Positions 2,108 to 29,446 of a DNA stretch of 40,238 nt are shown piece after piece. Numbering within the stretch: position 1 is the stretch's first letter; the number at the start of each line of letters is the position of its first letter. Both the position numbers and the translations under genes were made by a program. Origin of the DNA: Sporanaerobium hydrogeniformans (GTDB taxonomy: Bacteria > Bacillota > Clostridia > Lachnospirales > Cellulosilyticaceae); assembly GCF_002735925.1 (NCBI RefSeq), contig NZ_PEDL01000023.1, forward strand, positions 1 through 40,238, in the 5' to 3' direction. A model generated the notes under the pieces. That model worked only from the letters and a program-made list of their open reading frames with translations. It was not told the DNA's origin and did not search any database.

Positions 2108-2118
2108 GGGGGAAAATC

Positions 2119-5757: not shown

Positions 5758-5781
5758 AAGATGAAAAAGGCAGGAAGCGGC

Positions 5782-6246: not shown

Positions 6247-6286
6247 GAAGATATAAGATAATGGGGTATTACATGAGGAGGTACAA

Positions 6287-13394: not shown

Positions 13395-13530
13395 GGATTT
13401 AATAATCTAGTAAAAGAGATAAAAACTAAAATTAAAAATGTAATTAAAACCGACAATCATTGTGGGGGAGTATTTTAAAGTAGTTAATATTATTTTTCTA
13501 GGATTGTTATACAGAATACATATATAGGTA

Positions 13531-13539
13531 TGCTATAAT
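13531..13539 (+). promoter_or_regulatory. Extended -10 promoter before the DUF262 module
   Basis: TGCTATAAT is a perfect extended -10 element, about 105 bases before the start at 13644, in the 249-bp gap after gajB. The -35 region is poor, which is common for extended -10 promoters. It suggests the DUF262/ATPase/288-residue genes form their own transcription unit. Confidence 0.5.
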
Positions 13540-13643
13540 TATATAAGAATATATATGTAACAATAGATGTTAAAAATATCACTTAGATAAGTGAAAAATA
13601 TAATATAAAATAGGTAATACTAAACCGTAGAGGAGGGTGTGAG

Positions 13644-14807
13644 ATGCAAAAAAATTATGAACGGTTGGAAGAAGAGTACTATGGTATAGAAAATGAGCAA
13701 GATGACCAATATGATAATGAAGAAACAATAGAATATCCGTTTGATGCGGATATGATTAGAGTAGATCAACAGATGCTATCTTTGGAATACTTATATAGGT
13801 TAATGAAGGAGCAAAATTTAGATTTAAGTCCTACATTTCAACGAAGCAAGGTTTGGAAAGAAAAAAGACGTAAGTCTTTACTGATTGAATCCTTAATGCT
13901 AAGGATTCCGATTCCAGCTTTTTATTTCTATGAGAATGAAAATGCTACATTTACCGTTATTGATGGTAAACAGAGGCTTACAACCATAAGAGATTTTTTA
14001 AATGATGATTTTGCGTTATATGGCCTAGAATATTTGCATGCTTGTGAAGGCAAAAAATTTTCGCAGCTTGATGCTAAATATCAACAACGAATCTATAGAA
14101 CTCAGTTTGCCATTAATACCTTGGATGTAAGGTCTCCTCATAGGGTTGTATTTGATATATTTAGAAGGGTTAATACGGGTGGAGTAGCACTTAATCCACA
14201 AGAAATTAGAAATGCGATGGCATCGGAAGGTACAAGACAATTTTTGAAAAAGCTATCTAAATTAGAAGTATTTAAAAAGGCTACAAGGGCAAGAATAAAT
14301 GATGACAGAATGGCAGCACAAGAAGTGGTATTACGTTATATAGCATTTAAGAAGTTATATGATGAGCAGAAAGGAAATATTGATTTTATATATGGAGATG
14401 TCACATCATATTTAGATACTACAATTATGGAGTTAAGAAAAGCAGCAAAGGATACTTATATAGAGTATGAAGAAAGCTTTGCAAAAGCAATGAAGATGGG
14501 GGCTGCTATATTTGGCAAATTTGCTTTTACAAAATGCTATTTGGAAGGAGAAACTATATATAATAATCTAGATATTATTAATAAAACATTATTTACATCT
14601 TGGTCAGTAGTTTTATCAGATCCAAAATACCAAAGAGAGAAAATATTAGGTTGTAGGGAAGAAATTGTTAAGCAAGTAGCATATAGGATTACCTATGATA
14701 CTTCATATGCAAACGCAATTACATTAGGAACAAATGGGAGAAGATCAGTAAACATAGCATTTGAAGTTGCTAAGGAGATTTTGGAAGAGGTACTACACAA
14801 TGATTAG
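13644..14807 (+). CDS. DUF262 (ParB/GmrS-like N-terminal) domain protein
   Basis: A 387-residue DUF262 protein. The signature DGKQRLTTIRDFL lies near residues 106-118, followed by the second conserved block FDIFRRVNTGGVALNPQEIR near 170-189. DUF262 is related to the ParB/Srx NTP-hydrolysing fold; in GmrSD-type restriction enzymes it supplies nucleotide hydrolysis for cleavage of modified DNA. Here the HNH-containing GmrD/DUF1524 half is absent, so this is a stand-alone DUF262. A very acidic N-terminal segment (residues 8-35) precedes the domain. It overlaps the next gene by 8 bases, indicating a functional pair with the ATPase. A GGAGGGTG ribosome binding site precedes the ATG. Confidence 0.85.
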   Translation: MQKNYERLEEEYYGIENEQDDQYDNEETIEYPFDADMIRVDQQMLSLEYLYRLMKEQNLDLSPTFQRSKVWKEKRRKSLLIESLMLRIPIPAFYFYENENATFTVIDGKQRLTTIRDFLNDDFALYGLEYLHACEGKKFSQLDAKYQQRIYRTQFAINTLDVRSPHRVVFDIFRRVNTGGVALNPQEIRNAMASEGTRQFLKKLSKLEVFKKATRARINDDRMAAQEVVLRYIAFKKLYDEQKGNIDFIYGDVTSYLDTTIMELRKAAKDTYIEYEESFAKAMKMGAAIFGKFAFTKCYLEGETIYNNLDIINKTLFTSWSVVLSDPKYQREKILGCREEIVKQVAYRITYDTSYANAITLGTNGRRSVNIAFEVAKEILEEVLHND

Positions 14808-15918
14808 AGAAATTGAGATAAGGAATTATAAATGTTTAGTAAATAAAAAAATTACAGTAGGAAATTTAAACTTCTTCGCAGGTGGCAATGCTGTTGGTAA
14901 GTCTAGTTTTATTCAAGCTATATTATTACTAAGAAGTGCGTATTCTCAAACAGATAAGGGAGAAGTGCAACTTAATGATTTTTATGGTACCAATTTAGGA
15001 TTGGCAAAAAATGCAATTGCTACTAATCATGACGATACTTCACAAATAGAAATAAAGGCATCCTGTTATGATAGAAATATTTATCATGCTATCTATAAAG
15101 TAGGTGAGGAAATAACCATGCCTTTTGCTTTAGAAATAGTAAATAGAGAAGATATAGAGAGACAAAAAAAAGAAAGTAACAGTAAGATTGATAACATCTC
15201 TTTTACTTATTTGAATGCTGAACGAATAGGGCCTAGAATTGCCTTAGATATGGGAAATGATAAAAACTTAAATATAGGATTTAAAGGAGAATATACGAAT
15301 CATGTTATTAATAAAGCTGACAAACTAAGAATAGATATACATGATAATCTTAAGGTTAGTGTACTTGATAAATTCTCGGCACATTGTCAAGAATGGTTAA
15401 ATACGATTATACCAGGAATAGAGCTTAGTACAGAAGTGAATGAGAATGTTAATAAAGCAATTATCCAGTATAAAAATAATAAGACATCTAGTGAATTTTA
15501 CACACCCACTGGTACAGGTTTTGGAATTACATATACCTTACCAATTATTGTTGGGGGATTACTTGCTTCAAAACAGAAAGATAGCATATTTATAGTTGAA
15601 AATCCAGAGGCTCACTTGCATCCAAGTGCACAATCTAATTTAGGGAAATTCTTAGCATTATTATCTTCAACAGGAATTCAATTATTTATAGAGACTCATA
15701 GTGAGCACATTATTAATGGTGCAAGGCTACAATTAGCTAAAATGCATAATACAGATAATATGCATGTTTTCTTTTTCTCAAATGAAGGAAAGAGTATAGA
15801 TATTGATAGTATTACACTTAACGAATATGGTGAGTTAGATCACTGGCCTATAGGTTTTTTTGATCAAAGTAAAATAGACTTAAGAGAATTAGTGAGGTTA
15901 AGGATGTGTGGGAAGTAG
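14800..15918 (+). CDS. OLD/RecF-like AAA ATPase with DUF3696-like C-terminus
   Basis: A 372-residue ABC-type ATPase. Walker A is GGNAVGKSS (residues 28-36), the Walker B-like stretch is VENPEAHLHPSAQ near 266-278, and a switch histidine lies in IETHSEHIINGARL. The C-terminal end GELDHWPIGFFDQSKIDL resembles the DUF3696 tail of OLD-like ATPases, and no TOPRIM nuclease domain is present. The start is ATG 14800, which has GGAAGAGG nine bases upstream and overlaps the DUF262 stop; an upstream TTG at 14761 is unlikely. DUF262 plus DUF3696 ATPase pairs occur in defence islands, where the ATPase presumably senses or loads on DNA while partners act (inference). Confidence 0.85.
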   Translation: MIREIEIRNYKCLVNKKITVGNLNFFAGGNAVGKSSFIQAILLLRSAYSQTDKGEVQLNDFYGTNLGLAKNAIATNHDDTSQIEIKASCYDRNIYHAIYKVGEEITMPFALEIVNREDIERQKKESNSKIDNISFTYLNAERIGPRIALDMGNDKNLNIGFKGEYTNHVINKADKLRIDIHDNLKVSVLDKFSAHCQEWLNTIIPGIELSTEVNENVNKAIIQYKNNKTSSEFYTPTGTGFGITYTLPIIVGGLLASKQKDSIFIVENPEAHLHPSAQSNLGKFLALLSSTGIQLFIETHSEHIINGARLQLAKMHNTDNMHVFFFSNEGKSIDIDSITLNEYGELDHWPIGFFDQSKIDLRELVRLRMCGK

Positions 15919-16772
15919 AGTTTTATACCATAACATTTGATCTACTTAAGTGTACAACCATTGAAGAAGCAGAAAGAGTTATCATGGCATATTTAGAAAT
16001 GATAAGTGAATTAAGAAGAAATAAGTTGTCGATTAAAACACCAAGTGATTTGTATAATACTAAAATATGTAGTGAATTAGAGTTGTTTGAGTACTTGTTC
16101 TATGATGATCAAGGGCAGAATGAAGATATTCGCAGTTTAATAAGGGAAATAATAGAGAAAGATATTAAAACAGGAGATATTTCTTTTGATGATTTAATTT
16201 ACTTGTTAAACAGTGACTATTATAAAGCTTATAAAGCCTTAATAAGTCATAAGCAAGTAGAGATTGATATAGATGAAAATTTAAAAGTGCTAGATCCTAA
16301 AGGATATCTAGCACCTTATAGGTTTTATCTATCTCACAGTGAAACATTAGAGGAGTTTCAAGAAGCAATGAAGGATTGTTTTCCTCATTTGTTATTTCAC
16401 AATAGAGTTTATCAAACAATGAATGCAAAGCTAAGAGATATTGGTAGTTTTCAAGAAGAACTTATAAGACATTTATCGGCAATAAATGATTATGCAAAAG
16501 AAGTTTATGAAGAGGTAGGTAATCGAGAATTCTACAGAGTATTTAAATCACGTTACAACATAGAATGCAGTGGAAGAGGAAGTAGAGAATGTGGGGATGG
16601 TTTTAAGTGCAAATTTAGTAATAGGAGTGGAATAGAGGAAGAAGTAACCTGTAATCCTCATACAAAGTTATATAACAGCTATTCTGAGTACAGAATTTAT
16701 TTTAGTTTTGGAAAAGAAAGTATTGCGGATGGAAAGATTCTTATTGGTCATATTGGTGGACATTGGGAATAA
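15906..16772 (+). CDS. Unrecognised 288-residue protein, third gene of the DUF262/ATPase set
   Basis: I do not recognise this family. The start is GTG 15906, overlapping the ATPase stop by 13 bases, with GAGG about nine bases upstream, so it is translationally coupled to the ATPase. The first 180 residues look helical and acidic (for example IRSLIREIIEKDIKTGDI). The C-terminal 80 residues are different: basic and cysteine-containing, with ECSGRGSRECGDGFKCKF, then VTCNPHTKLYNSY, and ending KILIGHIGGHWE. Conserved-looking Arg, His, Cys and Gly suggest a small catalytic or nucleic-acid-binding domain, possibly the effector of the trio, but nothing seen proves a nuclease. No signal peptide or membrane segment is present. 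Confidence 0.8.
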   Translation: MWEVEFYTITFDLLKCTTIEEAERVIMAYLEMISELRRNKLSIKTPSDLYNTKICSELELFEYLFYDDQGQNEDIRSLIREIIEKDIKTGDISFDDLIYLLNSDYYKAYKALISHKQVEIDIDENLKVLDPKGYLAPYRFYLSHSETLEEFQEAMKDCFPHLLFHNRVYQTMNAKLRDIGSFQEELIRHLSAINDYAKEVYEEVGNREFYRVFKSRYNIECSGRGSRECGDGFKCKFSNRSGIEEEVTCNPHTKLYNSYSEYRIYFSFGKESIADGKILIGHIGGHWE

Positions 16773-16869
16773 GAAAGACTAAAAGATACTTAAATTAAAA
16801 ATAACATGATACAGATCTGAAAAGATTAATAGTATCCTAGTAAAAGTTGCGAAATAGGGAGTTGATACA

Positions 16870-17832
16870 ATGAAATCTCAGCGTATCTTTTTAATCCTTG
16901 ATATATTTAGAAGAAAAACCAATGCTAATACAGGTATTAAGATAAAAGAAATTCAAGACATTTTAGAGATAGAAGAGAATCTACAAGTAAGTAGAATGAC
17001 CATTACAAATGATATTCTCTTTTTACAAGAAAGCATGAAGCAACCTATTTTGAAAAAAATGGGGGCGCATAATACTGCTTATTATTACTTTATACCCTAT
17101 TTGAAAAATAATGAAGTAAGAATATTGTTAGATTCATTAGGTGCTAATAAATTTGTATCAGATAGAGATAAGAAAAAGTTAGCAGATGATTTATTAGGTC
17201 TTGTAGCTGAAGAAGATCAAAGAAAATTACGAAATATGGTTAAGACCAATTCTTTAGCAGAAGATGGTGAAGACATATTATATACTTTAAAAAAGGTTCA
17301 AGAGGCAATAGAAGAAGAGCGTTTTGTCGCATTTGAATATGGTAAATATGGGATGGATAAGAAGCTCCATCTTACAGGTAAGTCTTATAAAGTAGTGCCT
17401 AAAGAAGTTTATTATTTCAATGATAGATATTATCTCATAGCTTATAAAGATGGAGAACTAAGAAATTTTAGGATAGATCGTATATTAGGTGTGCGAGTGG
17501 AAGAATTTCATTATCAGGTAGGGAAAGTTGATTTAGGGAAGTATGACCTCATTCACTTTGATATGTTTGGAGCAGAAGAGATAGATGTTATACAGCTAAG
17601 AGTGAGTAATTATTTATTAGATTCTGTAGTAGAAAGGTTTGGTAAAAAGGTTAATGTAAAACCAGAGCTAAACCATCCAGAATGCTTTGTTTTAACAGAA
17701 AAAGTAGGTATTAATCAAGGATTAATAAGATGGATATTAAAGCAGGGAAAAGGTATTAAAGTACTTTCACCAGAAAAGCTTAGAGATAGAGTAATGAATG
17801 AAATAAAGCAGATGATAGAGCTATATGAATAA
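16870..17832 (+). CDS. WYL-domain transcriptional regulator (wHTH-WYL-WCX)
   Basis: A 320-residue regulator. Residues 1-75 form a DeoR/YafY-type winged helix-turn-helix (KEIQDILEIEENLQVSRMTI). Residues about 140-210 form the WYL domain with KVVPKEVYYFNDRYYLIAYK and RNFRIDRILGVRV, and the C-terminus is a WCX-like extension. WYL proteins bind nucleic-acid or nucleotide ligands and repress defence operons, BrxR of BREX being one example. It sits between the DUF262 module and the pPIWI-RE genes with a 97-bp gap upstream and its own terminator. It could control the pPIWI-RE unit that follows or the BREX locus as a whole. The start has AGGGAG seven bases upstream. It is not fused to other domains. 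Confidence 0.88.
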   Translation: MKSQRIFLILDIFRRKTNANTGIKIKEIQDILEIEENLQVSRMTITNDILFLQESMKQPILKKMGAHNTAYYYFIPYLKNNEVRILLDSLGANKFVSDRDKKKLADDLLGLVAEEDQRKLRNMVKTNSLAEDGEDILYTLKKVQEAIEEERFVAFEYGKYGMDKKLHLTGKSYKVVPKEVYYFNDRYYLIAYKDGELRNFRIDRILGVRVEEFHYQVGKVDLGKYDLIHFDMFGAEEIDVIQLRVSNYLLDSVVERFGKKVNVKPELNHPECFVLTEKVGINQGLIRWILKQGKGIKVLSPEKLRDRVMNEIKQMIELYE

Positions 17833-17852
17833 TCATATGGCTCTATTTTTTT
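17817..17852 (+). terminator. Terminator at the end of the WYL gene
   Basis: AGAGCTATATGA (17817-17828) pairs with TCATATGGCTCT (17833-17844), one G-U pair, with a 4-base loop, followed by ATTTTTTT. The stem overlaps the last codons of the WYL gene and insulates the pPIWI-RE genes from upstream transcription. Confidence 0.85.
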
Positions 17853-17895
17853 GTAATAAAGTTCTAGATGATACGTAGATTAACATCTGGAAACT

Positions 17896-17901
17896 TATAA
17901 T
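17896..17901 (+). promoter_or_regulatory. Probable -10 box of the pPIWI-RE operon
   Basis: A perfect TATAAT lies in the 72-bp gap between the WYL terminator and the first pPIWI-RE gene. The -35 region is weak. Just upstream, AGATG (17866-17870) and CATCT (17884-17888) form a short inverted repeat with a 13-base spacer, a possible operator for the neighbouring WYL regulator (inference). Confidence 0.35.
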
Positions 17902-17923
17902 AAGATGTAAAGGGGTGAATTTA

Positions 17924-18979
17924 ATGGAAAAAAAGGATTTAATTCGATTCATTGCAACCGGGCTTGTAGAATGGTATGAAGAAGGACAAGTTAGTGGAAG
18001 TTTATCTAAGATGCCTTACCAACTTAAAAGAGGAATGAATAGACTATGTGCTCAGATGCCAATTCCTCTTATTATTAATAATCGTATAGAAATGATAAAA
18101 GCTTTATCCAGACCTATAAGGGAGTTGGGCCTAAAGGAGATAAGTCCAGCTTATGATGATGAAATTTTAATAGTAGATGGTATGCCATCTGATCTATGCT
18201 ATGACTTAGCAGTTGATGAAAGAGATGCACAAGGATCTATTGAACAGGGAAAAATAGTAGAGATTATTAACTTGCTAAGAATTCATGGGCAGCAAGAGGA
18301 TTATGTCAATATAAGAAGATTTATTATTGAGAATCCAATCACTACAGAAGAAAAAATAGATGAGTTTATAAGGAAAAATACTGAGTTTAATGTGGAGTTG
18401 AGAAAAATTTATAGTATGATTAAGGATTTCTATGAAGATATTCCTTATCATGTGAAGCAAGGAGATGAGATAAGAGTATGTAGACATTGTGGGTGGACCA
18501 TTCAAGAAAAGAATGGTGTTACAACATGTATTTCGAATCATTGTAAAGCTGAGGATGCACATAAGAATGGCATTATACAGAAAGTAGTACCGAGTACAAA
18601 ACGTCTTAAACAAGGAGCCATGCGTTATTTATGTTTTCCAGGACAGCCAGAGTTAGCACTTATGAAAAAGCTTCGAAAAAAGAAAGGATTACAAGTAGAA
18701 TTATGGCCGTACTTTGATAAGTATGATATTGAAGTGACTTTTGCAAATGAAAAGTGGGCTCTAGATATAAAAGATTATGCTAATCCATATCACCTCATAG
18801 AGAAAGTAACCTATTTTGAGCCTAGTGTCTGTAGCTGTAGTTTTATCGTTATTCCTAAGAGAAGGACAAGGTTTCATAAAGGATATAAGAAGATATTAAG
18901 AGCAGAAAAGCCAATAGGGTTTGAGTTTATAGGAGAAGATGAGCTGATAAATATGATTAATAAGAAGGTGAAACAGTGA
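17924..18979 (+). CDS. pPIWI-RE system PD-(D/E)XK restriction endonuclease
   Basis: A 351-residue protein whose C-terminal part has the order expected of a restriction-endonuclease fold: E243 in GQPELALMKKL, D268 in KYDIEVTF, then D281-I-K283 in KWALDIKDYANP, a clear PD-(D/E)XK signature. A four-cysteine zinc-ribbon-like element precedes it (C186, C189, C202, C207). The helical N-terminus resembles the accessory domain of pPIWI-RE nucleases. The identification rests on this fold plus position: the next two genes are a DinG-like helicase and a PIWI-RE protein, the known three-gene island. ATG 17924 is chosen because AAAGGGG lies eight bases upstream; a GTG at 17915 would start inside that site. 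Its stop overlaps the next start (GTGA). Confidence 0.82.
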   Translation: MEKKDLIRFIATGLVEWYEEGQVSGSLSKMPYQLKRGMNRLCAQMPIPLIINNRIEMIKALSRPIRELGLKEISPAYDDEILIVDGMPSDLCYDLAVDERDAQGSIEQGKIVEIINLLRIHGQQEDYVNIRRFIIENPITTEEKIDEFIRKNTEFNVELRKIYSMIKDFYEDIPYHVKQGDEIRVCRHCGWTIQEKNGVTTCISNHCKAEDAHKNGIIQKVVPSTKRLKQGAMRYLCFPGQPELALMKKLRKKKGLQVELWPYFDKYDIEVTFANEKWALDIKDYANPYHLIEKVTYFEPSVCSCSFIVIPKRRTRFHKGYKKILRAEKPIGFEFIGEDELINMINKKVKQ

Positions 18980-21900
18980 AAGATTTTGAAGGTATTATGC
19001 AAGATATACTACAGGAATATAGTAATGCTCTTTCAGAATTAAAAAAGAATCAATGTCTAACGCTAGTGAGAACAGAAATCTTTTTATGTGGATTAAGCCA
19101 ACTGGGGTTTATAGGAAAAGATATTGCAAAGAGCTGGGCCTTACTTAGTGGGTATCAATATAATAATGGTAAATATCATATAGCACTGGAGCAAAATCAG
19201 TATGAAATAGTAGCAAAGATGAGAGGCTTTATGCAGTTTAGTATGGGATCTAATGCTTTTAGAAGGTTGCTAAATGAGTATATACAGTTACCTAGAAATA
19301 TGAGGTTGTTTCATATAGAGGTAGAAGATAAGGTATATCTATTAAGAGAGAATATACCCAATCTATTTAGTGGAAGAAAGCAGTTATTAAATCAAGTTTT
19401 TGATGTGTCAATTCCATTTAAGATTAACAAACAAGACTATGTTACAAAGAAAAGTGCTTATTTGATGGAAGATGAAAAAATAGAGAATATTAAGTTGCCA
19501 GAACAAGTTACTAATAGGGCACACCTTCCTAAGGCAAGTATGATTAGAGAAGGCAGAAAAGATGAGCTTGTCATTAGTAAACAGCAATTAGTAGAAATGG
19601 CATGCTATATGGATGGGATCTTACCAGGGCGTAACTATGAAGAAAGAGCAAATAAGATTTTTTTTGATCAAGTGTCTGAAGATGGTAGCGTATTAGAAAT
19701 AGAAGAATTAGTTATTAAGGATTTACTTAATATTGTAGGAAGAGTAGGAGCAGGTAAATCTACTTTGGTAGAGATTCTAACGACTTATATGGCACAAAAA
19801 GGACATAAGGTAGCTATAGTCGTAGATAGTATTTATTCAATCTTACAGTATCTAGACATGTTTGAGCAATTAGGCATTAAAGCAGTACCTATATGGGGGT
19901 ATAGAAATAGAGAAACGCATATTCAAAAAGGATTATCACATTTAAAAGAAGAAAGTTTTTTGGATATAGAAGCATGTAATTATCATAAATGGCTATCAGA
20001 GATTTGTCCATTGGATGGATTAAGAACAGCCTCTGACATAAATAAGACATTTAGAGTAGGGAAAGAACCTTGCTTTAGTTTGATAGAGGACCTAGAAGAA
20101 GGAAAGATGAAACAATGTCCGTATTATGATATTTGTCCTTCTCATAAGGCAGATAATGAATTACCAGATGCTATGGTTTATATGACAACATCAGCGGCGT
20201 TTATTAAATCCAAAGTGTCTACAGCCATTTGGAAAGAAAGTGTACGTGTTTCGGAATTTTTATATTATAGGAGTGATTTAGTTATTTTTGATGAATCTGA
20301 TAGAGTACAGATTCAGTTTGATCAATGTTTTGCTGAATCATTGACCTTATTTGATGATACTAAGAAAAGTTATTTAAATCGTTTAGCACCTAAAATAGAA
20401 GCATGGTATTGTAATGATAGATTGAAACATGCCGGGGATAAGAGGGTGCAGAATTGGTATGTGCAATTTAGAAATACACAAAGATGTAGCGATTTAATTA
20501 TTGCCATACTTAAAGAAAATAAATGGCTTATAAAAAAGCTAGAAGGACGCTACTATACAGCCTATTCCTTAACGGATATGTTAGAAAGAGAATTAGAAAA
20601 AGAAGACCGGCTTGATAAGGCTCTGTTAAAAGAATTACGAGAATTTATAATAGATAATTTGAAAGAAAGTACAGGTCCAATTCATGCTATTTATAGAACG
20701 GCAATTTCAGAACAGAATGATGCAGCTATTATTAATGAACAAATTAAACTATGGTGGACGGGCAGTAAAGAAGATGAACTTTCAGAAAATTTGATTGACT
20801 GTATCAAGTATATTATTCTATCAAGTATTTTTGAAAAAAGTCTTAAGAGTATGGTAAATGGACTTGAAGAATTAGAAGTTCTGAAAGTATTGGATGTAGA
20901 GCAGGCAGGTACTTTCTATAGAGCAATTAAAGACTATTTACCACTTATACCTGCATCGCCAATGGGAAATCTTTTTGGTTTTAGAGTAACTATTAATGAA
21001 AAATGTGAGTTAAAGAGCTTTATTGTATTTAAGGCAACTGGAATGGGAAGATGGTTACTTACGAATTATCATCAATTATACATGGAGTTAGATAATCGAA
21101 AAGGGCCTCATGTAATCTTGTTGTCAGGGACAAGCTGGGCGCCTGGATCTTATAGCTATCATGTGAATGCTCCTGTAAATGTTTTGTTAAAAGGCACACA
21201 GGCAGATTTTGATGCAGTAGGTGAAAGTAAATTTATGTTAGATCCCGTAGCTGTTGATGGTGAGTATATAAAAGTATCAGGTACTAGTGGACAGTTAAGG
21301 ATTAATAATATACAAAAGATAGTACAAGGTTTATTTAAACGGCAAGGTGGTTTTAGGTCCAGGGTATCAAGGATTGAACAAGAGCTAGAAGTGCTAGAGG
21401 AAAATAGAAAGAAAGTACTTCTTCTAGTAGGAAGTTATGAAGAAGCAGAGGAAGTGAAGAAGTATTTAGATAGTTTCTTAATGCGTGAGGGAGGAATAAG
21501 ACCGGATGAAGTAACCTTACTGATTAAGGATCAAGCACAAGAAACGCAGGAGAGTGAAGCTGTATTAGCTAGAGGGCAAGTTGGGGAATTTGGTAAGACA
21601 GAATCAAAAGTATTAATAGCACCTTTATTAGCCCTAGAGAGAGGACACAATATTTTAAATCAAAATAATGAAGCGGCTATAGGAGCAGTATATTTTCTAA
21701 TTAGACCCATGCCAGTACCTAATGATATGAATATTATTTTGCATATGTTAAGTAGCTATATGTTAGGTCAAATGGATAAAATAGATAGATTAGACCTAGA
21801 TGATTATATGGACTGGATCAAAGTAGAGCGAGATAAAGCTATGACACGTATGCAGCAGTTACTTATTAGTAGTCAATACTTAGGGTATAAGCAGCTTTCA

Positions 21901-22212
21901 GATAGAGAAAGAACAGCATTATGTATGACTCAATTTGTAGTACTTTGCCAAGTAATAGGTCGTCTGGTAAGGGGAGGTTGTAAGGCAAGAGTACACTTTT
22001 GTGATGCAAAGTTTGCTCCGTATTCTCTTAAAAATCAAAAAGATACAGCACAATCCTCTTTACTAGTAGGTATTATAGAGGCATTAGCACCATTTATGGA
22101 AAGTAACGAGCAGATGAATATTAATCAGATGATTGCTAGAGAGTTATATTATCCCTTTTATAAGAATCTAAAGGAGTGTGAAGGATTAAGTTATGAAATC
22201 CAAAGAAGCTAA
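18976..22212 (+). CDS. pPIWI-RE system DinG-like superfamily 2 helicase with probable iron-sulfur cysteines
   Basis: A 1078-residue helicase. Walker A is GRVGAGKST (residues 255-263), the DEAD-like motif II is IFDESDRVQ with D439-E-S-D442, and motif VI is QVIGRLVRGG near residue 991. Between motifs I and II there are cysteines C334, C344, C366, C381 and C387, as in XPD/DinG helicases that hold a 4Fe-4S cluster. About 240 residues precede the helicase core and contain the associated N-terminal domain of this family. DinG-like enzymes unwind DNA-RNA hybrids and R-loops, so the predicted role is to open R-loops of invading DNA for the PIWI and nuclease partners. Start GTG 18976 overlaps the nuclease stop by four bases. 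Confidence 0.82.
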   Translation: MKDFEGIMQDILQEYSNALSELKKNQCLTLVRTEIFLCGLSQLGFIGKDIAKSWALLSGYQYNNGKYHIALEQNQYEIVAKMRGFMQFSMGSNAFRRLLNEYIQLPRNMRLFHIEVEDKVYLLRENIPNLFSGRKQLLNQVFDVSIPFKINKQDYVTKKSAYLMEDEKIENIKLPEQVTNRAHLPKASMIREGRKDELVISKQQLVEMACYMDGILPGRNYEERANKIFFDQVSEDGSVLEIEELVIKDLLNIVGRVGAGKSTLVEILTTYMAQKGHKVAIVVDSIYSILQYLDMFEQLGIKAVPIWGYRNRETHIQKGLSHLKEESFLDIEACNYHKWLSEICPLDGLRTASDINKTFRVGKEPCFSLIEDLEEGKMKQCPYYDICPSHKADNELPDAMVYMTTSAAFIKSKVSTAIWKESVRVSEFLYYRSDLVIFDESDRVQIQFDQCFAESLTLFDDTKKSYLNRLAPKIEAWYCNDRLKHAGDKRVQNWYVQFRNTQRCSDLIIAILKENKWLIKKLEGRYYTAYSLTDMLERELEKEDRLDKALLKELREFIIDNLKESTGPIHAIYRTAISEQNDAAIINEQIKLWWTGSKEDELSENLIDCIKYIILSSIFEKSLKSMVNGLEELEVLKVLDVEQAGTFYRAIKDYLPLIPASPMGNLFGFRVTINEKCELKSFIVFKATGMGRWLLTNYHQLYMELDNRKGPHVILLSGTSWAPGSYSYHVNAPVNVLLKGTQADFDAVGESKFMLDPVAVDGEYIKVSGTSGQLRINNIQKIVQGLFKRQGGFRSRVSRIEQELEVLEENRKKVLLLVGSYEEAEEVKKYLDSFLMREGGIRPDEVTLLIKDQAQETQESEAVLARGQVGEFGKTESKVLIAPLLALERGHNILNQNNEAAIGAVYFLIRPMPVPNDMNIILHMLSSYMLGQMDKIDRLDLDDYMDWIKVERDKAMTRMQQLLISSQYLGYKQLSDRERTALCMTQFVVLCQVIGRLVRGGCKARVHFCDAKFAPYSLKNQKDTAQSSLLVGIIEALAPFMESNEQMNINQMIARELYYPFYKNLKECEGLSYEIQRS

Positions 22213-24664
22213 GAAAGTAATGAAAACAAGGGCGCTAAGAGACTTAAAGGTTTTGGCATGGAAGGTAAACCCTTTACAAGAACCTATTATGTACTACTCA
22301 GTAGTGTTTCCTAAGAAGTGGTATGATTTATTATATGGATGGTATCAGAAAATACATCAAAGGGGAGATGTGAAGTTACCAACTTCAAGTTTAAATGGAG
22401 CTATGAATGCATTACCAGTATCATTAATAGAAGCAAAAGATTTTGAAAAGGACAAGTGGGATTGGCTTAAGCTGCTACGTCCAGTAGATCCAACTATTAT
22501 ATTTGAGGTTTTTAAAAGCTGGGTAGCAATAGAATTTATAAATCATAATAAAGTAACAGAAGAATTAAAGAAAGAATTTAGAGACGGGTTATCAAGCTTT
22601 CAATTACAGGACCTAGAAGTGGTAGAAGAAACACTGGATTTAAGAGAATTTAATCAGTTTGATAATGGAACTGTAGATATACCTAAGATGTCATATAGCA
22701 TGCTACCTAATTATATGATGACTTATATTGCAGAAGAGAAAATTCCTATTATGATTCATGGAAAAGCGTATTATTTTCTAAAAGCAAGTGGTCGAAATGT
22801 AAATGAGCTCATAGCTTATCCAGTTCAAGGTTTGGATGGGAATTATTATTCGTTAGGTGTCTCTTTTAAGCTCATAACCTTACCGGATAGCGGATATCCT
22901 GTCATGAAGTTAATAACTAAAGTAAAAAGATGGGCCAATGGGAAATATATAAAGAAGGTTAGTAGAAAAGGAAATACAACAGTATTTATAAAGTATAACC
23001 ATAAAGAAGAAAGATTAGCGGATGTAGGTAGTACACTAGGCATAGAACATCTGCAATATAATCGTAGTAAAGAGCAGTTTATCTGGTGTGAAAATACGAA
23101 AGAAATTCTTGAAAATGCTAAAATGGTTTATTTACCAGAAATAGAGAACATTTTTAATGAGTCAGAGAGCTACCTAACGGAAGATAATAGATATACATTA
23201 TTGGTTACTCATAATAAAGACAATTCTTATGATCATAGTGTCCAAGCAGGAATAACTATGTCAGAGAAAAATAAAATATTTAATGAGATTAGTAAACTAT
23301 TTGATTTTATAGTACCTATTGAAAAAGATGAATTAAGGCCGATAAAATGTCGTCTAAGCAAGAATATTTTAGGTAAAGAAAAAGAAAAGATATTAACTAA
23401 TTATTTGAAAGCAGCAAGTGAACAATTTACTGAGATTAATTTAGAGATACTTTGGCTAAGAGAAGAAGTTCCTGATTTATTTATTAATTGGTTTAAACGT
23501 AGTCTAGAAAATGAAGACCAGGTGAAATGGTATAATGATGATACAACTTTTGAATATAATGAATTAAGAGTTAATATACGGAGCAAATATTCAGAGGGCT
23601 TAACTACTAAAATGACCAATTATGAAGAGAAGGTTTTATCCGTTAAAGAGTGTCTTACAGATGCCACAGGTGTAGTCATGACAGTAGTGGAAATACTAGA
23701 TAAAAAGAATGCAGAGTATACAAAGGGAGGAGACCCTAAATTTGCTATTCGAAAAGGGTTGTATCAGTGTGATCGGGTTAATCAGTTTCTGAATGTGAAT
23801 ACTAAGTTGAGCGATGCAATTATTGAAAACGTTATTAGGGAATTATTTAGGCAGCTAGGAATATATATTGCACTGCCACAAACAACAGGTCTTAAGGGAA
23901 TGCCACAGAAACTAGATATAGTTGGCTTTAAACTTCTAAGCAGTAACAAAAATCAGTATAAAGATGCATTAGAAGTACCTATTGCTATTAGTACATCCAC
24001 TTATGATGGACAAATTATGGTTAAGACACCATTTTCAAGTGGTTGGATTAGTTATTATGAGGCAGTATTACAATTGGGGAAAATGAAGTATCAAAAGTAT
24101 GATAAAAGAAAAAAGAATCGAGATTTATCTGTGGATACGTTGAATAGATTCTTTATAGAAATTTTGAATGAACTCAAGGACATGGATGCCTTAGTTATAG
24201 TAGACGTATCCAATCGCATGAATACTTTATTACCTACATTTCAAAATAAGAACATAATTATACAAGGCACTAATACCGAATATAAGAAATTACGTTTAAT
24301 ACGAGTAAAGGCTAATGACGAGAATCCAGAATACGTAGGAGAGCAGGATGGTGTACAAGAAGATTTCTTGACGGGTGTATGGGGATTAACAGATAATGTT
24401 TTCTATTCGGTAGAAAAAAAGGGACTTACATTTAAAAAAGTAAATAGTAAGTTACCTAAATTAGATTATCCACGGTTTGTAGTTAAATATCCTAGAATGG
24501 TAGAAATCGTGCCTGTTAAGTTACTTGAAGAGGATAATAAAGATGAGTATGTTTATTTTACTCATAAAATGAGGGGCATGAATAGTATGTATGAAGATTA
24601 TACGAAGATGCCATTTGTTATTCATTTAGGGGAAAAGTTACAAGAGGTATTAGAGATAAAATAA
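22193..24664 (+). CDS. pPIWI-RE protein (prokaryotic PIWI with conserved Arg and Glu)
   Basis: An 823-residue protein with an N-terminal module about 400 residues long, a MID-like middle and a C-terminal RNase H/PIWI-like domain. Visible landmarks of the PIWI-RE family are a first-strand Asp (D575 in KLDIVGFKL), VIVDVSNRMNTLLP with D671 and R675, the arginine R704 in LRLIRVKAND, and the glutamate E771 in RMVEIVPVKL. These fit the conserved Arg and Glu that name the family. It is predicted to bind a guide or an RNA-DNA hybrid and direct restriction of invasive DNA; this is family-level inference, and the catalytic set is not fully verified here. It overlaps the helicase gene by 20 bases and ends in a strong terminator. 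Ribosome binding site GAAGGA. Confidence 0.82.
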   Translation: MKSKEAKKVMKTRALRDLKVLAWKVNPLQEPIMYYSVVFPKKWYDLLYGWYQKIHQRGDVKLPTSSLNGAMNALPVSLIEAKDFEKDKWDWLKLLRPVDPTIIFEVFKSWVAIEFINHNKVTEELKKEFRDGLSSFQLQDLEVVEETLDLREFNQFDNGTVDIPKMSYSMLPNYMMTYIAEEKIPIMIHGKAYYFLKASGRNVNELIAYPVQGLDGNYYSLGVSFKLITLPDSGYPVMKLITKVKRWANGKYIKKVSRKGNTTVFIKYNHKEERLADVGSTLGIEHLQYNRSKEQFIWCENTKEILENAKMVYLPEIENIFNESESYLTEDNRYTLLVTHNKDNSYDHSVQAGITMSEKNKIFNEISKLFDFIVPIEKDELRPIKCRLSKNILGKEKEKILTNYLKAASEQFTEINLEILWLREEVPDLFINWFKRSLENEDQVKWYNDDTTFEYNELRVNIRSKYSEGLTTKMTNYEEKVLSVKECLTDATGVVMTVVEILDKKNAEYTKGGDPKFAIRKGLYQCDRVNQFLNVNTKLSDAIIENVIRELFRQLGIYIALPQTTGLKGMPQKLDIVGFKLLSSNKNQYKDALEVPIAISTSTYDGQIMVKTPFSSGWISYYEAVLQLGKMKYQKYDKRKKNRDLSVDTLNRFFIEILNELKDMDALVIVDVSNRMNTLLPTFQNKNIIIQGTNTEYKKLRLIRVKANDENPEYVGEQDGVQEDFLTGVWGLTDNVFYSVEKKGLTFKKVNSKLPKLDYPRFVVKYPRMVEIVPVKLLEEDNKDEYVYFTHKMRGMNSMYEDYTKMPFVIHLGEKLQEVLEIK

Positions 24665-24683
24665 ATTAATCAGACAGCTGTAG

Positions 24684-24730
24684 AGCAAAAAGAGCAATGA
24701 GGTACATACCTTCTAATTGCTCTTTTTGCT
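24684..24730 (+). terminator. Strong terminator after the pPIWI-RE operon
   Basis: AGCAAAAAGAGCAA (24684-24697) pairs perfectly over 14 bp with TTGCTCTTTTTGCT (24717-24730), with an 18-base loop region that can form a smaller internal hairpin. It separates the pPIWI-RE unit from pglZ. It may act on both strands. Confidence 0.8.
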
Positions 24731-24747
24731 ATGTTGCATAATAATAA

Positions 24748-24761: not shown

Positions 24762-24862
24762 CTTTAATGTATAATGGATATAATAAATATGGAAAGAACT
24801 ATAATAAAATAGTACAATGAGATTAATAAGTGAAGTTATTTACTCTTGAAAGGAGCAAAGAA

Positions 24863-27385
24863 GTGGCAGAGCTAAATTTTAAGCAAATAGCAGATAAACT
24901 AAACGAAGAATTTACTGGAGATAGCCGTAAGCTTATTTTCTGGTATGATGAGGGCGGAGATTTTGCTGAGGATATAGATACTCTAGAGTTAACCAATGCT
25001 AAGGTGTACCATTTAAGACCCGATAATCAATTTAAAACGAAAATCTTCTTAGAGAGAGAAGATAAGACCACTAACTACTTAATTTATGCCCCATTTCCTA
25101 AACCTTCTATTAGAGACAATCATTTAGCAGATACATTGAGATATTCTAAGGAATTCTTTGCAGATAGAGCCTCTTTATTAACAGTGGATTTAGGAATAGA
25201 TGAGAAGTATAAAGGTGTCATTAAGAAGTATGAGAAATTCTTTGGAGCCAAGGATAGGATTAAGCGTTTCTATGAGCTAGAAATAGAACGATTTACAGAA
25301 GAGACGATTAAACTAGCTTTACTGAGTGTGCTTTGTAAAACCAAGATTTTATCCTTTGAAGAAGTGGTACGTGTAATCTTAACGGATGGTGACTTAGAAG
25401 AGAATAAATTCTTAGCTGAATTTGGGAAGTATGATCTTTTAGAAGTATTTTGGAATTTCTGTGAGTTGCAGTTTGGTTATAGAGACCATGAACCTAGTCT
25501 TGAAAAATTAATGCTAACTATGTTTTGTACTTATGCAGAGCGCTATATTTCAGCGGATTTACCCAGAGCATGGCAACCATTTGTATCTTATAAATCTGGT
25601 AATATCATAGCGTTTCTTGATAACTTAATGAACAATGTACTTTATCATGAGAGATTTGATGAATTATCTGCTTTGGTAGGAAAGCAGCTGAGTATCAAAG
25701 AAAATCTTAAAAAGTATGCACCAGATACCTTCTTAGAATGTGAAGTATTTGCAGCCATAGATGAAATGATTATCGATTGGATGAAGGAGCGCCTTTTAGA
25801 TGAAAATATAGGAGCTACTTTATCTGGCATGCCAATGACAGTAGTAACACAGATGCGTATAAAAAAGCATTTTGGCACAAAGTATGGCGCAGAATACAAG
25901 CTAATAGAAGCTGCGTATTACTTAGTACAAGGTGCACAGTATGAATGTCCAAATGATTTTAAAGCTCTTATTAATCAGTATGAGAAAAAGGATTATCTAT
26001 TAGATTATCATTATAGACAGTTTTATTATCACTATGATCAATTAGAGGATAATGCAGCCTATGAAAGATTACGTGATTTAGTAGAAAATATTTATACCAA
26101 TGAATATCTAAGTAAGCAGTTAACAAGCTTTAATCAAGGCATTTTATCAGAGGGGGCTTTTGAAGTATTGCCACGTCAAACCCAGTTTTACAGTAAGTTT
26201 ATAAAGCTTGCAAAGGAAAGAAAAATAGTCATTATCTCAGATGCTATGCGTTATGAAGTGGGACGAGAATTACTTCAAAAACTGCAAGAGAGTGCTAAGT
26301 GCTCAGCTGAGATAGATATGATGATGGGAGTAATACCTTCTTATACTAGATTAGGGATGGCGGCATTATTACCACATCAGTCTTTAGAGTTAACGGATGA
26401 CTATAAAGTCCTAGTAGATGGTATGGGATGTGATGATCTGAAATCTAGAGAGCAGGTATTAAGACAGTATGTGCCAAATGGTAAATGCGTGCAATTTGAT
26501 GATATTAAGCTGATGAAAAAGGTGGAGCTACGTCAGGAATTTGCAGGCGCTGATATCATTTATATTTATCATAATCAAATTGATGCTAGAGGGGACAAGC
26601 CTAATACAGAAAATGAAGTTTTTGTGGCTTGTAAAGAAGCGGTTGATGAGATATATGAGCTCATTAGAAAGCTTACAGATAATATTAGTGCTACCCATTT
26701 TATAGTGACAGCAGATCATGGATTCTTATATAAGCGAGATAGATTACAAGAAAGTGATAAGATTGGTAATATAGCAGGTAAAGGTGCCTTTGTAAATAAA
26801 CGTTTTATTGTTTCGGAAGCAGCATGCCAAGATGATGGTATTGCACACTTACCTATGAGAGCTATTCTAGAAAATAATGATACAAAGGTGGTTTCATTCC
26901 CTATCACTTCACATATATTTAAAGCACCAGGTGGGGGGCAAAATTATGTTCATGGTGGCTCATCACCTCAAGAAGTACTGATTCCTGTTGTAACGATTAA
27001 AACAGAACGTGGTTACAAGGAAGTGAAGAATGCCAGCATTATGCTAGTAAGTATGCTCCAAAAAATCACAGGACTCAATACAACACTAGACTTTATCCAG
27101 TCAGAAGCTGTTGGTAAGCTGGTTAAGGAAACGACTTATAAACTGTATTTCGTTACAGAAGATAATGAGAGAATCTCTAATGAAAATATTTATGTGGCAG
27201 ATAAAAAAGAGGAAGAGCCACAAAAACGTGTTTTCCGTATGAGTTTTAGATTTAGAGATAGAAAATATGCCAAGACTTCTAAATACTACTTAGTAGGCTA
27301 TGATGAAAAGAATAATCTAGAGGTATTAAGACATGAGGTAATGATGGATATTGTCTTTGCCAATGATTTTGGATTCAATTTGTAG
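24863..27385 (+). CDS. pglZ: BREX alkaline phosphatase-superfamily protein PglZ
   Basis: An 840-residue PglZ of normal length. The phosphatase-like core contains IISDAMRYEVGREL with D460 and VTADHGFLYKRDR with D618-H619, plausible metal ligands of the alkaline-phosphatase superfamily. The opening LNFKQIADKLNEEF is family-typical. PglZ is essential for both BREX defence and methylation; related proteins show nuclease or phosphodiesterase activity. The start chosen is GTG 24863, which has AAAGGAG seven to eight bases upstream and gives the usual N-terminus; an in-frame GTG at 24830 lacks a ribosome binding site. It lies 15 kb from pglX because of the inserted modules, and 15 bp before brxL. Confidence 0.93.
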   Translation: MAELNFKQIADKLNEEFTGDSRKLIFWYDEGGDFAEDIDTLELTNAKVYHLRPDNQFKTKIFLEREDKTTNYLIYAPFPKPSIRDNHLADTLRYSKEFFADRASLLTVDLGIDEKYKGVIKKYEKFFGAKDRIKRFYELEIERFTEETIKLALLSVLCKTKILSFEEVVRVILTDGDLEENKFLAEFGKYDLLEVFWNFCELQFGYRDHEPSLEKLMLTMFCTYAERYISADLPRAWQPFVSYKSGNIIAFLDNLMNNVLYHERFDELSALVGKQLSIKENLKKYAPDTFLECEVFAAIDEMIIDWMKERLLDENIGATLSGMPMTVVTQMRIKKHFGTKYGAEYKLIEAAYYLVQGAQYECPNDFKALINQYEKKDYLLDYHYRQFYYHYDQLEDNAAYERLRDLVENIYTNEYLSKQLTSFNQGILSEGAFEVLPRQTQFYSKFIKLAKERKIVIISDAMRYEVGRELLQKLQESAKCSAEIDMMMGVIPSYTRLGMAALLPHQSLELTDDYKVLVDGMGCDDLKSREQVLRQYVPNGKCVQFDDIKLMKKVELRQEFAGADIIYIYHNQIDARGDKPNTENEVFVACKEAVDEIYELIRKLTDNISATHFIVTADHGFLYKRDRLQESDKIGNIAGKGAFVNKRFIVSEAACQDDGIAHLPMRAILENNDTKVVSFPITSHIFKAPGGGQNYVHGGSSPQEVLIPVVTIKTERGYKEVKNASIMLVSMLQKITGLNTTLDFIQSEAVGKLVKETTYKLYFVTEDNERISNENIYVADKKEEEPQKRVFRMSFRFRDRKYAKTSKYYLVGYDEKNNLEVLRHEVMMDIVFANDFGFNL

Positions 27386-27400
27386 GGGAGGATAAAAGGT

Positions 27401-29446
27401 ATGATAGAGACAGAGCATACAGAGCTTATGGAGAAATTACAAACACACTTTGCGGGTAAGATTGTGCGTAAGGACCTTACCAAGAAAATCAAAGAAGGTG
27501 CCAATGTTCCCGTATATGTACTTGAGTATTTATTAGGGATGTATTGTTCTTCTATGGATGAAGCAGATATTGAGGCAGGCGTACAGAATGTAAAGACCAT
27601 TCTTGCCGAGAATTATGTGCGCCCAGATGAGGCTCAAAAGATCATCTCTAAGTTAAGAGAGATGGGACGTTATACCGTTATTGATAAAATCTCGGTGAAA
27701 CTTAATTATAAAGATGATGTTTATGAAGCAGAATTTTCTAACTTAGGCATCAAGAATGTTCCTATTGCCAATAAGTATGCCGCTGATTATGAAAGGCTAC
27801 TTTGCGGAGGAATCTGGTGCATTGTACAACTAGAGTATTTCTATGATGAAGGGGATAAGAATCGTTGCCCATTTGTAATTTGCAAGGTGACACCTATTCA
27901 GATGCCAAGTCTTGATCTCGAGGAAGTAAAAGCCGCTAGAGCACATTTTACAGATGATGAATGGTTAGATTTACTTTTAAGAAGTACAGGAATGGAGCCA
28001 TCAGGCTTTAATAAAAGGGTCAAATGTCTTCATCTAGCAAGACTCATTCCACTTATTGAAAATAACTATAATCTTTGCGAGTTAGGACCAAGAGGGACAG
28101 GTAAGTCACACGTTTACAAAGAGATAAGTCCTAATAGTATCCTAGTTTCAGGAGGGCAAACTACTGTAGCTAACCTTTTCTACAATATGGGAAGTAAAAC
28201 CATGGGGCTTGTTGGTATGTGGGATTGTGTTGCTTTTGATGAGGTAGCAGGGATCAAATTTAAGGATCAAGATGGCGTACAAATTATGAAAGATTATATG
28301 GCATCAGGCTCTTTTGCAAGAGGAAAAGAGGAAAAGAATGCCTCTGCTTCTATGGTGTTTGTAGGGAATATTAATCAAAGTGTAGATACAGTGTTAAAGA
28401 CTTCTCATTTATTTGATCCATTTCCAGATGTGATGGCAAATGACTCAGCCTTCTTAGATCGTATGCACTGTTATATTCCAGGATGGGAGATTCCAAAGTA
28501 TAGACCAGAGTTCTTCACAGATGATTATGGTTTTATCACCGATTACTTCTCAGAGATTATGAGAGAGCTACGTAAAATATCTTATGCAGATGCCTATGAT
28601 CAGTATTTTAAACTAGGTAATAACCTCAATCAGCGTGATGTAATAGCCGTCAAGAAAACTGTTTCAGGCCTTGTAAAATTACTACATCCAGATGGCAATT
28701 TTACAAGAGAGTCTATTGAGGAAATTCTGCGCTTTGCCCTAGAAATGCGTAGACGTGTCAAAGAGCAGCTTAAAAAAATTGGCGGTATGGAATTCTATGA
28801 TGTCAATTTCTCTTACATTGATAAGGAAAACTTTAATGAAGAGTATGTACCTGTACCAGAGCAAGGTGGAGGCAAACTCATTCCAGAAGGAATGGGCAAA
28901 CCAGGTCATATCTATACCGTATCTCATGGTAAAAGTGGCATGATAGGTGTCTACAAAATAGAGATGCAAATGTCATCAGGAACAGGTAAATTTGAAAAAA
29001 CAGGGCTTGGTTCAGACAGAGAGGCAAAAGAAGCAGTAGAAACAGCGTATCGTTATCTTAAGGCTAATGGCAAAAATATTAGTGGCACCATTAGCACTAC
29101 TACTAAAGATTATCTCATGCATGTACAAGACCTTAATGGTATTGGTATGACCAAGATGCTCACTTTACCAGCGGTAGTTGCTATTGCATCAGTAGCACTT
29201 GGTAAACCATCTATTAGTAGTGCGGTCATATTAGGAGATCTAAGTATTGGTGGAACGATTATAAAGGTAGAGGAGTTAGCGAACACGCTTCAAGTTTGTT
29301 TAGATAGTGGCGCAAAGAAAGTGCTCTTACCAATAACTTCAGCAGCTGACTTAGGGACAGTTCCAGCAGAGCTTATGGGGTGCTTTAATATTATTTTCTA
29401 CCAAAGTGCTGAAGATGCTGTATTTAAAGCTTTAGGTGTAGAGTAA
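27401..29446 (+). CDS. brxL: BREX Lon-like AAA+ protein BrxL
   Basis: A 681-residue BrxL. The AAA+ Walker A is GPRGTGKS at residues 229-236, with VAFDEVAGIKF as the Walker B-like segment. The C-terminal third is Lon-protease-like, with AVILGDLSIGGTIIK and GAKKVLLPITSAADL. The GPSAG serine motif of true Lon proteases is not evident (the equivalent stretch reads QDLNGIGMTKML), in line with BrxL being a DNA-binding AAA+ effector rather than a protease. BrxL is needed for phage restriction but not for host methylation in studied type 1 systems. A GGGGAGG ribosome binding site precedes the ATG, and the gene follows pglZ closely. It is the last BREX gene. Confidence 0.94.
   Translation: MIETEHTELMEKLQTHFAGKIVRKDLTKKIKEGANVPVYVLEYLLGMYCSSMDEADIEAGVQNVKTILAENYVRPDEAQKIISKLREMGRYTVIDKISVKLNYKDDVYEAEFSNLGIKNVPIANKYAADYERLLCGGIWCIVQLEYFYDEGDKNRCPFVICKVTPIQMPSLDLEEVKAARAHFTDDEWLDLLLRSTGMEPSGFNKRVKCLHLARLIPLIENNYNLCELGPRGTGKSHVYKEISPNSILVSGGQTTVANLFYNMGSKTMGLVGMWDCVAFDEVAGIKFKDQDGVQIMKDYMASGSFARGKEEKNASASMVFVGNINQSVDTVLKTSHLFDPFPDVMANDSAFLDRMHCYIPGWEIPKYRPEFFTDDYGFITDYFSEIMRELRKISYADAYDQYFKLGNNLNQRDVIAVKKTVSGLVKLLHPDGNFTRESIEEILRFALEMRRRVKEQLKKIGGMEFYDVNFSYIDKENFNEEYVPVPEQGGGKLIPEGMGKPGHIYTVSHGKSGMIGVYKIEMQMSSGTGKFEKTGLGSDREAKEAVETAYRYLKANGKNISGTISTTTKDYLMHVQDLNGIGMTKMLTLPAVVAIASVALGKPSISSAVILGDLSIGGTIIKVEELANTLQVCLDSGAKKVLLPITSAADLGTVPAELMGCFNIIFYQSAEDAVFKALGVE

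What the first reader, a model, noticed from the sequence alone, without database searches (positions are those of the whole stretch)
17924..24664. Complete pPIWI-RE island (nuclease, DinG-like helicase, PIWI-RE protein)
Three overlapping genes encode a PD-(D/E)XK nuclease (D268, D281, K283), an Fe-S-type DinG-like helicase and an 823-residue PIWI-RE protein with candidate conserved Arg (R704) and Glu (E771). This system was predicted computationally to act on R-loops of invading DNA, and I know of little experimental work on it. Finding it intact within BREX provides a natural test case.
Basis: partly seen in the sequence, partly recalled or inferred. Interest (0 to 1): 0.85.

Follow-up and report, generated by a model that had tools for sequence, protein, structure and literature searches.

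The report
pPIWI-RE defence cassette inside BREX
A clostridial genome carries, inside a known anti-phage gene cluster, a complete three-gene system built around a distant Argonaute relative that seems to have lost its own cutting site and probably steers a helicase and a DNA-cutting enzyme to invading DNA, with a likely switch gene next door.

Summary
Profile searches identify all three genes above curated cut-offs: a new member of a family described in 2013, lying between pglX and pglZ of a type 1 BREX locus beside Gabija and NsnABC genes. R704 and E771 are conserved columns, though which arginine is the eponymous R is unsettled.

Four additions. (1) The PIWI domain looks catalytically dead: the position expected for the first catalytic Asp is K580, and is Asp in 0 of 77 proteins compared. 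The presumed guide-binding MID positions are kept. (2) The cassette is probably its own transcription unit, with a WYL regulator gene in front and a promoter dyad whose halves, spacing and distance to TATAAT recur in the nearest relative found. (3) Nesting in BREX is unusual: none of 87 other loci collected shows BREX genes in its searched flank, and 9 of 9 related BREX loci examined lack the cassette; one plasmid has both about 6 kb apart. (4) The layout resembles DdmDE/ApsAB: inactive Argonaute-like sensor, SF2 helicase, PD-(D/E)XK nuclease. That analogy fits at least as well as the 2013 R-loop model. Function is untested.

The parts
16870..17832 (+). WYL-domain regulator gene (320 aa), candidate repressor of the cassette
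   Evidence: Pfam WYL 9.5e-11 and WCX 3.3e-7 above cut-off, HTH_11 0.0062 below cut-off; homologue at the same place and on the same strand in the nearest relative found, L013 (phmmer 3.3e-76)
17814..17847 (+). terminator-like hairpin with U-tract at the end of the WYL gene
   Evidence: the scan as a whole found 5 such sites against 3.9 expected by chance; fold -23.5 kcal/mol, 0 of 200 shuffles as good; a hairpin with U-tract lies at the same place in L013 (-10 kcal/mol, 1 of 200 shuffles as good)
17864..17890 (+). candidate operator dyad CTAGATGAT-N9-AACATCTGG
   Evidence: same geometry and 5 bp from TATAAT in L013 4260-4286; 0 of 150 paired shuffles reach the joint score 32 (mean 28.1, max 30); the best of 62 other REase upstream regions has 5 mismatches
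17896..17901 (+). TATAAT, candidate -10 element of the cassette promoter
   Evidence: sequence; the consensus promoter scan did not list it, as it asks for a -35 match too; no experimental evidence
17924..18979 (+). REase protein: helical Y domain, zinc ribbon (C189, C192, C205, C210), PD-(D/E)XK nuclease (D271, D284, K286; all counted from the GTG at 17915)
   Evidence: Pfam; PADLOC PprRE; conservation; model pLDDT 90.7
18976..22212 (+). DinG-like SF2 helicase with Z domain, four Fe-S cysteines (C344, C366, C381, C387), Walker A and DESD box
   Evidence: pPIWI_RE_Z; PprDinG 3.9e-152; conservation
22193..24664 (+). pPIWI-RE protein, 823 aa: X, MID and RNase H-like PIWI domains; presumed catalytic position 1 is K580, position 2 is D671
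   Evidence: (PprPIWI 7.6e-95); model
24680..24737 (+). strong hairpin after the pPIWI-RE gene, possible terminator ending the cassette
   Evidence: fold -26.3 kcal/mol, 0 of 200 shuffles as good; not listed by the consensus terminator scan
923..9835 (+). host BREX type 1, left part: brxA, brxB, brxC, a DUF3990/PDC-M10A gene, pglX
   Evidence: BREX_1_MTaseX
10022..16772 (+). other cargo: gajA-gajB (Gabija) and nsnA-nsnB-nsnC
24830..29446 (+). host BREX type 1, right part: pglZ (type A), brxL
   Evidence: TIGR02687

Best explanation
This is a self-contained pPIWI-RE defence cassette carried as cargo in the pglX-pglZ gap of a type 1 BREX locus. Most likely the pPIWI-RE protein holds a short nucleic-acid guide through its MID domain, finds complementary invader DNA without cutting it, and hands the opened DNA to the Fe-S DinG helicase, with the PD-(D/E)XK protein doing the cutting. 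This is the division of labour described for DdmDE. The WYL protein most likely binds the dyad over the cassette promoter and keeps the genes low until a signal releases it. Shown here by computation: gene identities, conserved catalytic and metal-binding residues of nuclease and helicase, absence of Asp at the first PIWI catalytic position, Argonaute-like predicted fold, a dyad shared with one relative, flanking hairpins. Inferred: guide use, target type, helicase-nuclease cooperation, separate transcription, repression by WYL.
For: Family profiles for all three proteins. Nuclease, zinc and Fe-S residues nearly invariant in 64 REases and 72 helicases, as expected for working enzymes. Column 580 is Asp in 0 of 76 proteins, and no Asp stands anywhere in columns 576-582; a further protein also has no Asp there. 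The MID positions K516, R520, Q531 and R553 hold K, R, Q and R in 71, 76, 72 and 70 of 76, a K-x3-R-x10-Q-x21-R pattern like the Y-x3-K-xn-Q-xn-K guide motif quoted in PMC11096173 (passages). Predicted structure: CbAgo 6qzk Z 19.9 over 546 residues, rmsd 6.1 A. The REase model reaches DdmD only weakly: Foldseek 4.7e-3, behind Bax1 at 1.8e-3, nothing at 0.001 or better; Z 8.1 over 194 residues, rmsd 4.7 A, against a top row of 8.8 for another chain (9wuf). Its D-x12-D-x-K spacing equals that of the anti-plasmid protein ApsA (D1420, D1433, K1435). A WYL gene also stands upstream of ddmDE (PMC12409362 passages). Dyad and hairpins.
Against: No functional assay of this subgroup was found. The one tested member, PsPIWI-RE, cut DNA with RNA guides and RNA with DNA guides through D525 and D610, and its knockout was ciprofloxacin-sensitive, with no defence assay in the parts read, so not all members are inactive. 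The REase-DdmD match is in the range where unrelated folds can score (note), and no credible sequence relation to DdmD or DdmE was seen (in one search only 60 of 89 rows were shown). In ApsA a mutation of the nuclease site had only a partial effect. The dyad is seen in only two loci. Promoter-like and terminator-like sites in 9800-24900 are no more common than expected from shuffles (61 against 79.0; 5 against 3.9).
Confidence: 0.55

Rival explanations
1. The 2013 model: pPIWI-RE senses RNA-DNA hybrids or R-loops of transcribed or replicating invaders, the DinG helicase acts on the R-loop and the REase cuts the DNA; guides are RNA.
For: Proposed from gene content in PMC3702460 (section 6 read). 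PsPIWI-RE was active only with RNA guide/DNA target or DNA guide/RNA target. The DinG-type Fe-S helicase is intact here.
Against: No R-loop experiment on any triad was found in the papers seen. The DdmDE and ApsAB precedents give a tested alternative for a similar set of domains. Nothing in this sequence separates RNA from DNA guides.
Confidence: 0.3
2. A genome-maintenance role (replication or segregation under stress), with defence-island location coincidental.
For: PsPIWI-RE knockout survived ciprofloxacin about 15-fold less well than wild type and formed filaments.
Against: Patchy distribution: PF13032 over the cut-off in 2 of 24 family genomes, 3 of 392 order genomes, 4 of 391 class genomes and 2 of 398 phylum genomes, the window's own genome counted each time (samples overlap). 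Here it is packed among BREX, Gabija and NsnABC genes; L013 lies by a TnsD/TniQ gene and type I RM genes.
Confidence: 0.08
3. A decaying or silent passenger cassette.
For: A PLD-helicase gene beside brxL in the same island is frameshifted, so decay does occur here. Two near-invariant PIWI columns differ in the window (N677 and K706, where 69 and 70 of 76 have Arg).
Against: All three frames are full-length, REase and helicase catalytic residues are intact, and promoter-like and hairpin elements are in place. L013 also has N677 and K706, so these may be traits of the subgroup.
Confidence: 0.05

Closest known systems
pPIWI-RE three-gene island (Burroughs, Iyer, Aravind 2013, PMC3702460, abstract and section 6 read)
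   Same: Same three genes, same order, overlapping ends, same domains including zinc ribbon and Fe-S DinG helicase.
   Different: A separate WYL gene stands in front, with a promoter dyad shared with one relative; section 6 of the paper reports HTH domains fused to the REase instead. Located inside BREX.
PsPIWI-RE of Pseudomonas stutzeri (PMC10991935, parts 1-3 of 4 read)
   Same: Same family, beside DinG and nuclease genes.
   Different: PsPIWI-RE is an active guided nuclease needing D525 and D610; the window protein has K580 and D671 at the presumed matching positions (by spacing).
DdmDE and ApsAB anti-plasmid systems (PMC12409362 and PMC11096173, passages)
   Same: Argonaute-like sensor (inactive in DdmE) plus SF2 helicase plus PD-(D/E)XK nuclease; WYL gene upstream of ddmDE; same D-x12-D-x-K spacing in ApsA.
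   Different: There helicase and nuclease are one protein, and the sensors are not pPIWI-RE proteins (ApsB lacks a typical PIWI domain). No credible sequence relation in profile searches of solved structures.
BrxR/CapW WYL repressors of defence loci (PMC9122601, passages; PMC9122589 and PMC9122588, search listing only)
   Same: WYL gene in a defence island with an inverted repeat near the presumed controlled promoter.
   Different: The only solved chain matched at E up to 0.01 is 7u02, a WYL domain-containing protein, at E 0.0097; repression untested.
BREX type 1 loci with accessory nucleases (PMC12839542, passages and section 35 part 1 of 2)
   Same: Accessory nucleases inside core BREX loci, among them OLD-TOPRIM modules and GmrSD, are documented.
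   Different: The words PIWI and Argonaute do not occur in its main text.

Membership tests
pPIWI-RE three-gene island | REase, DinG helicase and pPIWI-RE genes in that order with overlapping or close ends | tested here: met
   overlaps of 4 and 20 bp
pPIWI-RE three-gene island | family domains X, MID, RNaseH; Y, zinc ribbon, REase; Z | tested here: met
   all six Pfam models above cut-off; zinc ribbon Cys 64 of 64
pPIWI-RE three-gene island | conserved Arg and Glu of the family name | tested here: inconclusive
   Glu: E771 (column Glu in 73 of 76). Arg: R701 and R704 present, but column 706 (Arg in 70 of 76) is Lys; the eponymous column could not be fixed
catalytically active PIWI nuclease | two catalytic Asp in the RNase H fold (D525, D610 in PsPIWI-RE) | tested here: not met
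   K580 and D671; column 580 Asp in 0 of 76; assignment by alignment, predicted strand and spacing
Argonaute/PIWI fold | MID-PIWI fold in the predicted structure | tested here: met
   model pLDDT 87.5; Foldseek 2f8s 7.1e-15; Z 19.9 to 6qzk, and A. fulgidus Piwi 1w9h Z 18.2 over 320 residues, rmsd 3.8 A
DdmDE/ApsAB | fused SF2 helicase-nuclease DdmD/ApsA | tested here: not met
   helicase and nuclease are separate genes
DdmDE/ApsAB | nuclease domain of DdmD type | tested here: inconclusive
   weak fold match, Z 8.1 over 194 residues, Foldseek 4.7e-3
BREX type 1 (host locus) | brxA, brxB, brxC, pglX, pglZ, brxL | tested here: met
BrxR/CapW-type WYL repressor | binds an inverted repeat at the promoter and represses | not testable with these tools
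   dyad found; binding needs an experiment

The most novel reading that the evidence does not exclude
pPIWI-RE triads with a dead PIWI domain are a three-protein counterpart of DdmDE/ApsAB, here under WYL control: a guide-loaded sensor licenses a separate Fe-S helicase and a separate nuclease to destroy plasmids or phage DNA, complementing the methylation-based BREX in which this one is nested.
Probability: 0.3. Interest if true: 0.65.

Novelty: new member of a known kind. Interest (0 to 1): 0.45.

Why it matters
The pPIWI-RE family was predicted in 2013, and no experimental test of its defence role turned up in the papers found. This compact, intact cassette with a predicted promoter, operator and end hairpin of its own can be moved as one piece into a laboratory strain. 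The absence of the first PIWI catalytic Asp across the sampled triads turns a vague prediction into a sharp one: the separate nuclease, not the PIWI protein, should do the cutting.

Tried and rejected
R704 as the certain eponymous Arg: left open, because columns 701, 704 and 706 all qualify and spacing to PsPIWI-RE does not decide. Helicase-nuclease fusions in actinobacterial loci: the long N-termini of some helicase ORFs look like wrong starts in GC-rich sequence, so no fusion is claimed (nine ORFs of eight loci viewed). BREX association as a general rule: not seen in the loci collected. Three weak PF13032 hits below the cut-off (L004, L005; L130) were set aside as probable chance. Rfam families and tRNAs in the window: none. 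No match to the PIWI protein in the phage collection, and none to the helicase in viral contigs with the patterns tried. A first scan of genome contigs with the single PIWI protein found nothing. Sequence search for solved relatives: none credible for the three proteins. A dyad in three alphaproteobacterial WYL-REase intervals: none found with 9-base arms at the threshold used. Shared flanking repeats around the cargo cassettes: only short, mostly AT-rich 10-mers.
Full report
What is there. The window is one whole contig (G000:C15, 40,238 bases). Three overlapping + strand genes at 17924-18979, 18976-22212 and 22193-24664 are the pPIWI-RE triad. Pfam models match each above curated cut-offs and PADLOC models agree. 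The ATG at 17924 follows a good ribosome-binding site.

Conserved residues. I collected relatives with the helicase profile: 110 relatives were found in genome contigs and the best 80 loci were returned. With the window and L011 these make 82 loci, all with a helicase hit, 79 with a PIWI hit, 64 with a REase hit and 63 with all three; several contigs are cut, and some REases may be hidden by wrong ORF starts. For the counts I used 64 REases of 300 aa or more, 72 helicases of 900 aa or more and 70 PIWI proteins of 750 aa or more, plus six PIWI proteins from plasmid loci and one from the phylum search. Nuclease D271, D284 and K286 are kept in 62, 61 and 61 of 64; the zinc ribbon cysteines in 64 of 64; the Fe-S cysteines and D439, E440 and D442 in 72 of 72. 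So the nuclease and helicase look functional.

The PIWI domain. In 76 PIWI proteins, the window among them, column 580 in the first strand of the RNase H fold is W, Y, H, S, K and others but never Asp, and no Asp stands in columns 576-582. Column 671 is Asp in 24 and Glu in 25. One further protein also lacks Asp at 580. The column choice rests on alignment, on the strand at 575-583 in the model and on spacing: PsPIWI-RE has 85 residues between its two catalytic Asp, L013 and L061 have 85 and 82 between these columns, and the window has 91. The window protein therefore most likely cannot cut in the way PsPIWI-RE does. The MID positions K516, R520, Q531 and R553 are kept in 71, 76, 72 and 70 of 76. 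The predicted structure (pLDDT 87.5) aligns with Argonautes along most of the chain, though at low identity and high rmsd for full-length alignments.

Control region. A WYL gene (16870-17832) precedes the triad. The nearest relative found, L013 (REase 46%, helicase 45% and PIWI 37% identical), has the same WYL-REase-DinG-PIWI order. In both, a hairpin with a U-tract follows the WYL gene, then a 27-bp dyad with 9-bp arms and 9-bp spacer, then 5 bp, then TATAAT. In 150 paired dinucleotide shuffles none reached the joint score. None of 62 other REase upstream regions came closer than 5 mismatches. A second strong hairpin follows the PIWI gene. Against this, the consensus scans found no excess of promoter-like or terminator-like sites in the region and did not list the TATAAT site or the second hairpin. 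A separate transcription unit is therefore probable, not shown. In the 92 stretches searched, other WYL hits were in L072 (two ORFs, one of them weak), weakly in L032, and next to the triad on the opposite strand in three alphaproteobacterial plasmids, L095-L097; so WYL is an occasional partner only.

Place in BREX. The locus is type 1 BREX. In the window, pglX and pglZ are 14,994 bases apart and the gap holds Gabija, NsnABC, WYL and the triad. In nine related BREX loci (nine fetched, of 33 other genomes matched) the gap from the last pglX-like ORF to pglZ ranges from an overlap to 1.8 kb, and none shows the triad (in one of them, L126, brxC and pglX are themselves short). Conversely, profiles of six BREX proteins matched only the window among 92 stretches searched. 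The other 91 stretches stand for 87 loci: L008 and L009 come from the contig of L013, and L010 and L012 equal L064 and L067. Flanks are at most about 10 kb and often cut; 73 of 84 PIWI ORFs had 3 kb or more downstream. One plasmid, in Hymenobacter, has a triad, with its PIWI part in several ORFs, about 6 kb from a type 1 BREX locus, just outside the flank searched. So the nesting is rare in this sample, but triad and BREX can be neighbours elsewhere.

Mechanism. The set of parts is an inactive Argonaute-like protein, an SF2 helicase and a PD-(D/E)XK nuclease. This resembles DdmDE, where inactive DdmE uses DNA guides and recruits the helicase-nuclease DdmD (PMC12409362 passages), and ApsAB (PMC11096173 passages). 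The REase model has weak fold matches to Bax1 and DdmD, and its catalytic spacing equals that of ApsA. This is an analogy; the fused helicase-nuclease, a defining trait of DdmDE, is absent. The 2013 R-loop proposal (PMC3702460 section 6) remains possible. PsPIWI-RE shows that some members are active guided nucleases with a ciprofloxacin phenotype (PMC10991935, parts 1-3 of 4).

What is in print. In the held library, 'pPIWI-RE' occurs in one paper, 'PIWI-RE' with 'BREX' in none, and 'PIWI-RE' with 'WYL' in nine papers whose titles are unrelated to this system (in one of them, checked by passages, the hits were 'Piwi-related'). A further search for 'PIWI_RE' with BREX gave none. Most subscription papers, and all preprints, are not held, so this is not proof of absence.

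Verdict. A real, intact member of a known but barely tested family, with three useful additions: no first catalytic Asp in the PIWI site, a WYL gene with a shared dyad, and rare nesting in BREX.

Noticed in passing
window 30034-32489: A PLD-nuclease/helicase gene downstream of brxL is broken by a frame change near 30921 (two ORFs sharing one helicase domain); single ORFs matching both parts exist in L074 and L075.
   Followed up: partly
window 10022-16772: A Gabija pair (gajA, gajB) and an NsnABC set lie between pglX and the WYL-triad cassette: with BREX and the triad, four defence units in one locus.
   Followed up: partly
window 5761-6246: A DUF3990/PDC-M10A gene sits between brxC and pglX; two related BREX loci carry other small genes there (L120, L125).
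   Followed up: no
window about 700-900: A small Cro/CI-like HTH open frame seems to end just before brxA, a possible BREX regulator (read by eye from the sequence; not searched).
   Followed up: no
L095 10730-18697 and L096 9286-17269: In two alphaproteobacterial plasmids the pPIWI-RE protein continues into a very long C-terminal part (over 2,650 aa read, cut by the stretch); in L095 an AAA_22 domain lies at 2417-2543.
   Followed up: partly
L096 4660-4780 and L097 4510-4550: Between divergent WYL and REase genes both plasmids carry a similar motif (TCGTCTA.TGAATGGATTGACA), with further copies in L096: a possible different WYL operator (seen by eye).
   Followed up: no
L008/L013: The nearest relative of the cassette lies between TnsD/TniQ-type transposition genes and a type I RM locus, suggesting carriage by a Tn7-like element.
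   Followed up: partly
L128 12724-39071: Hymenobacter plasmid with a pPIWI-RE system (PIWI part in several ORFs, perhaps broken) about 6 kb from a type 1 BREX locus on the opposite strand.
   Followed up: partly
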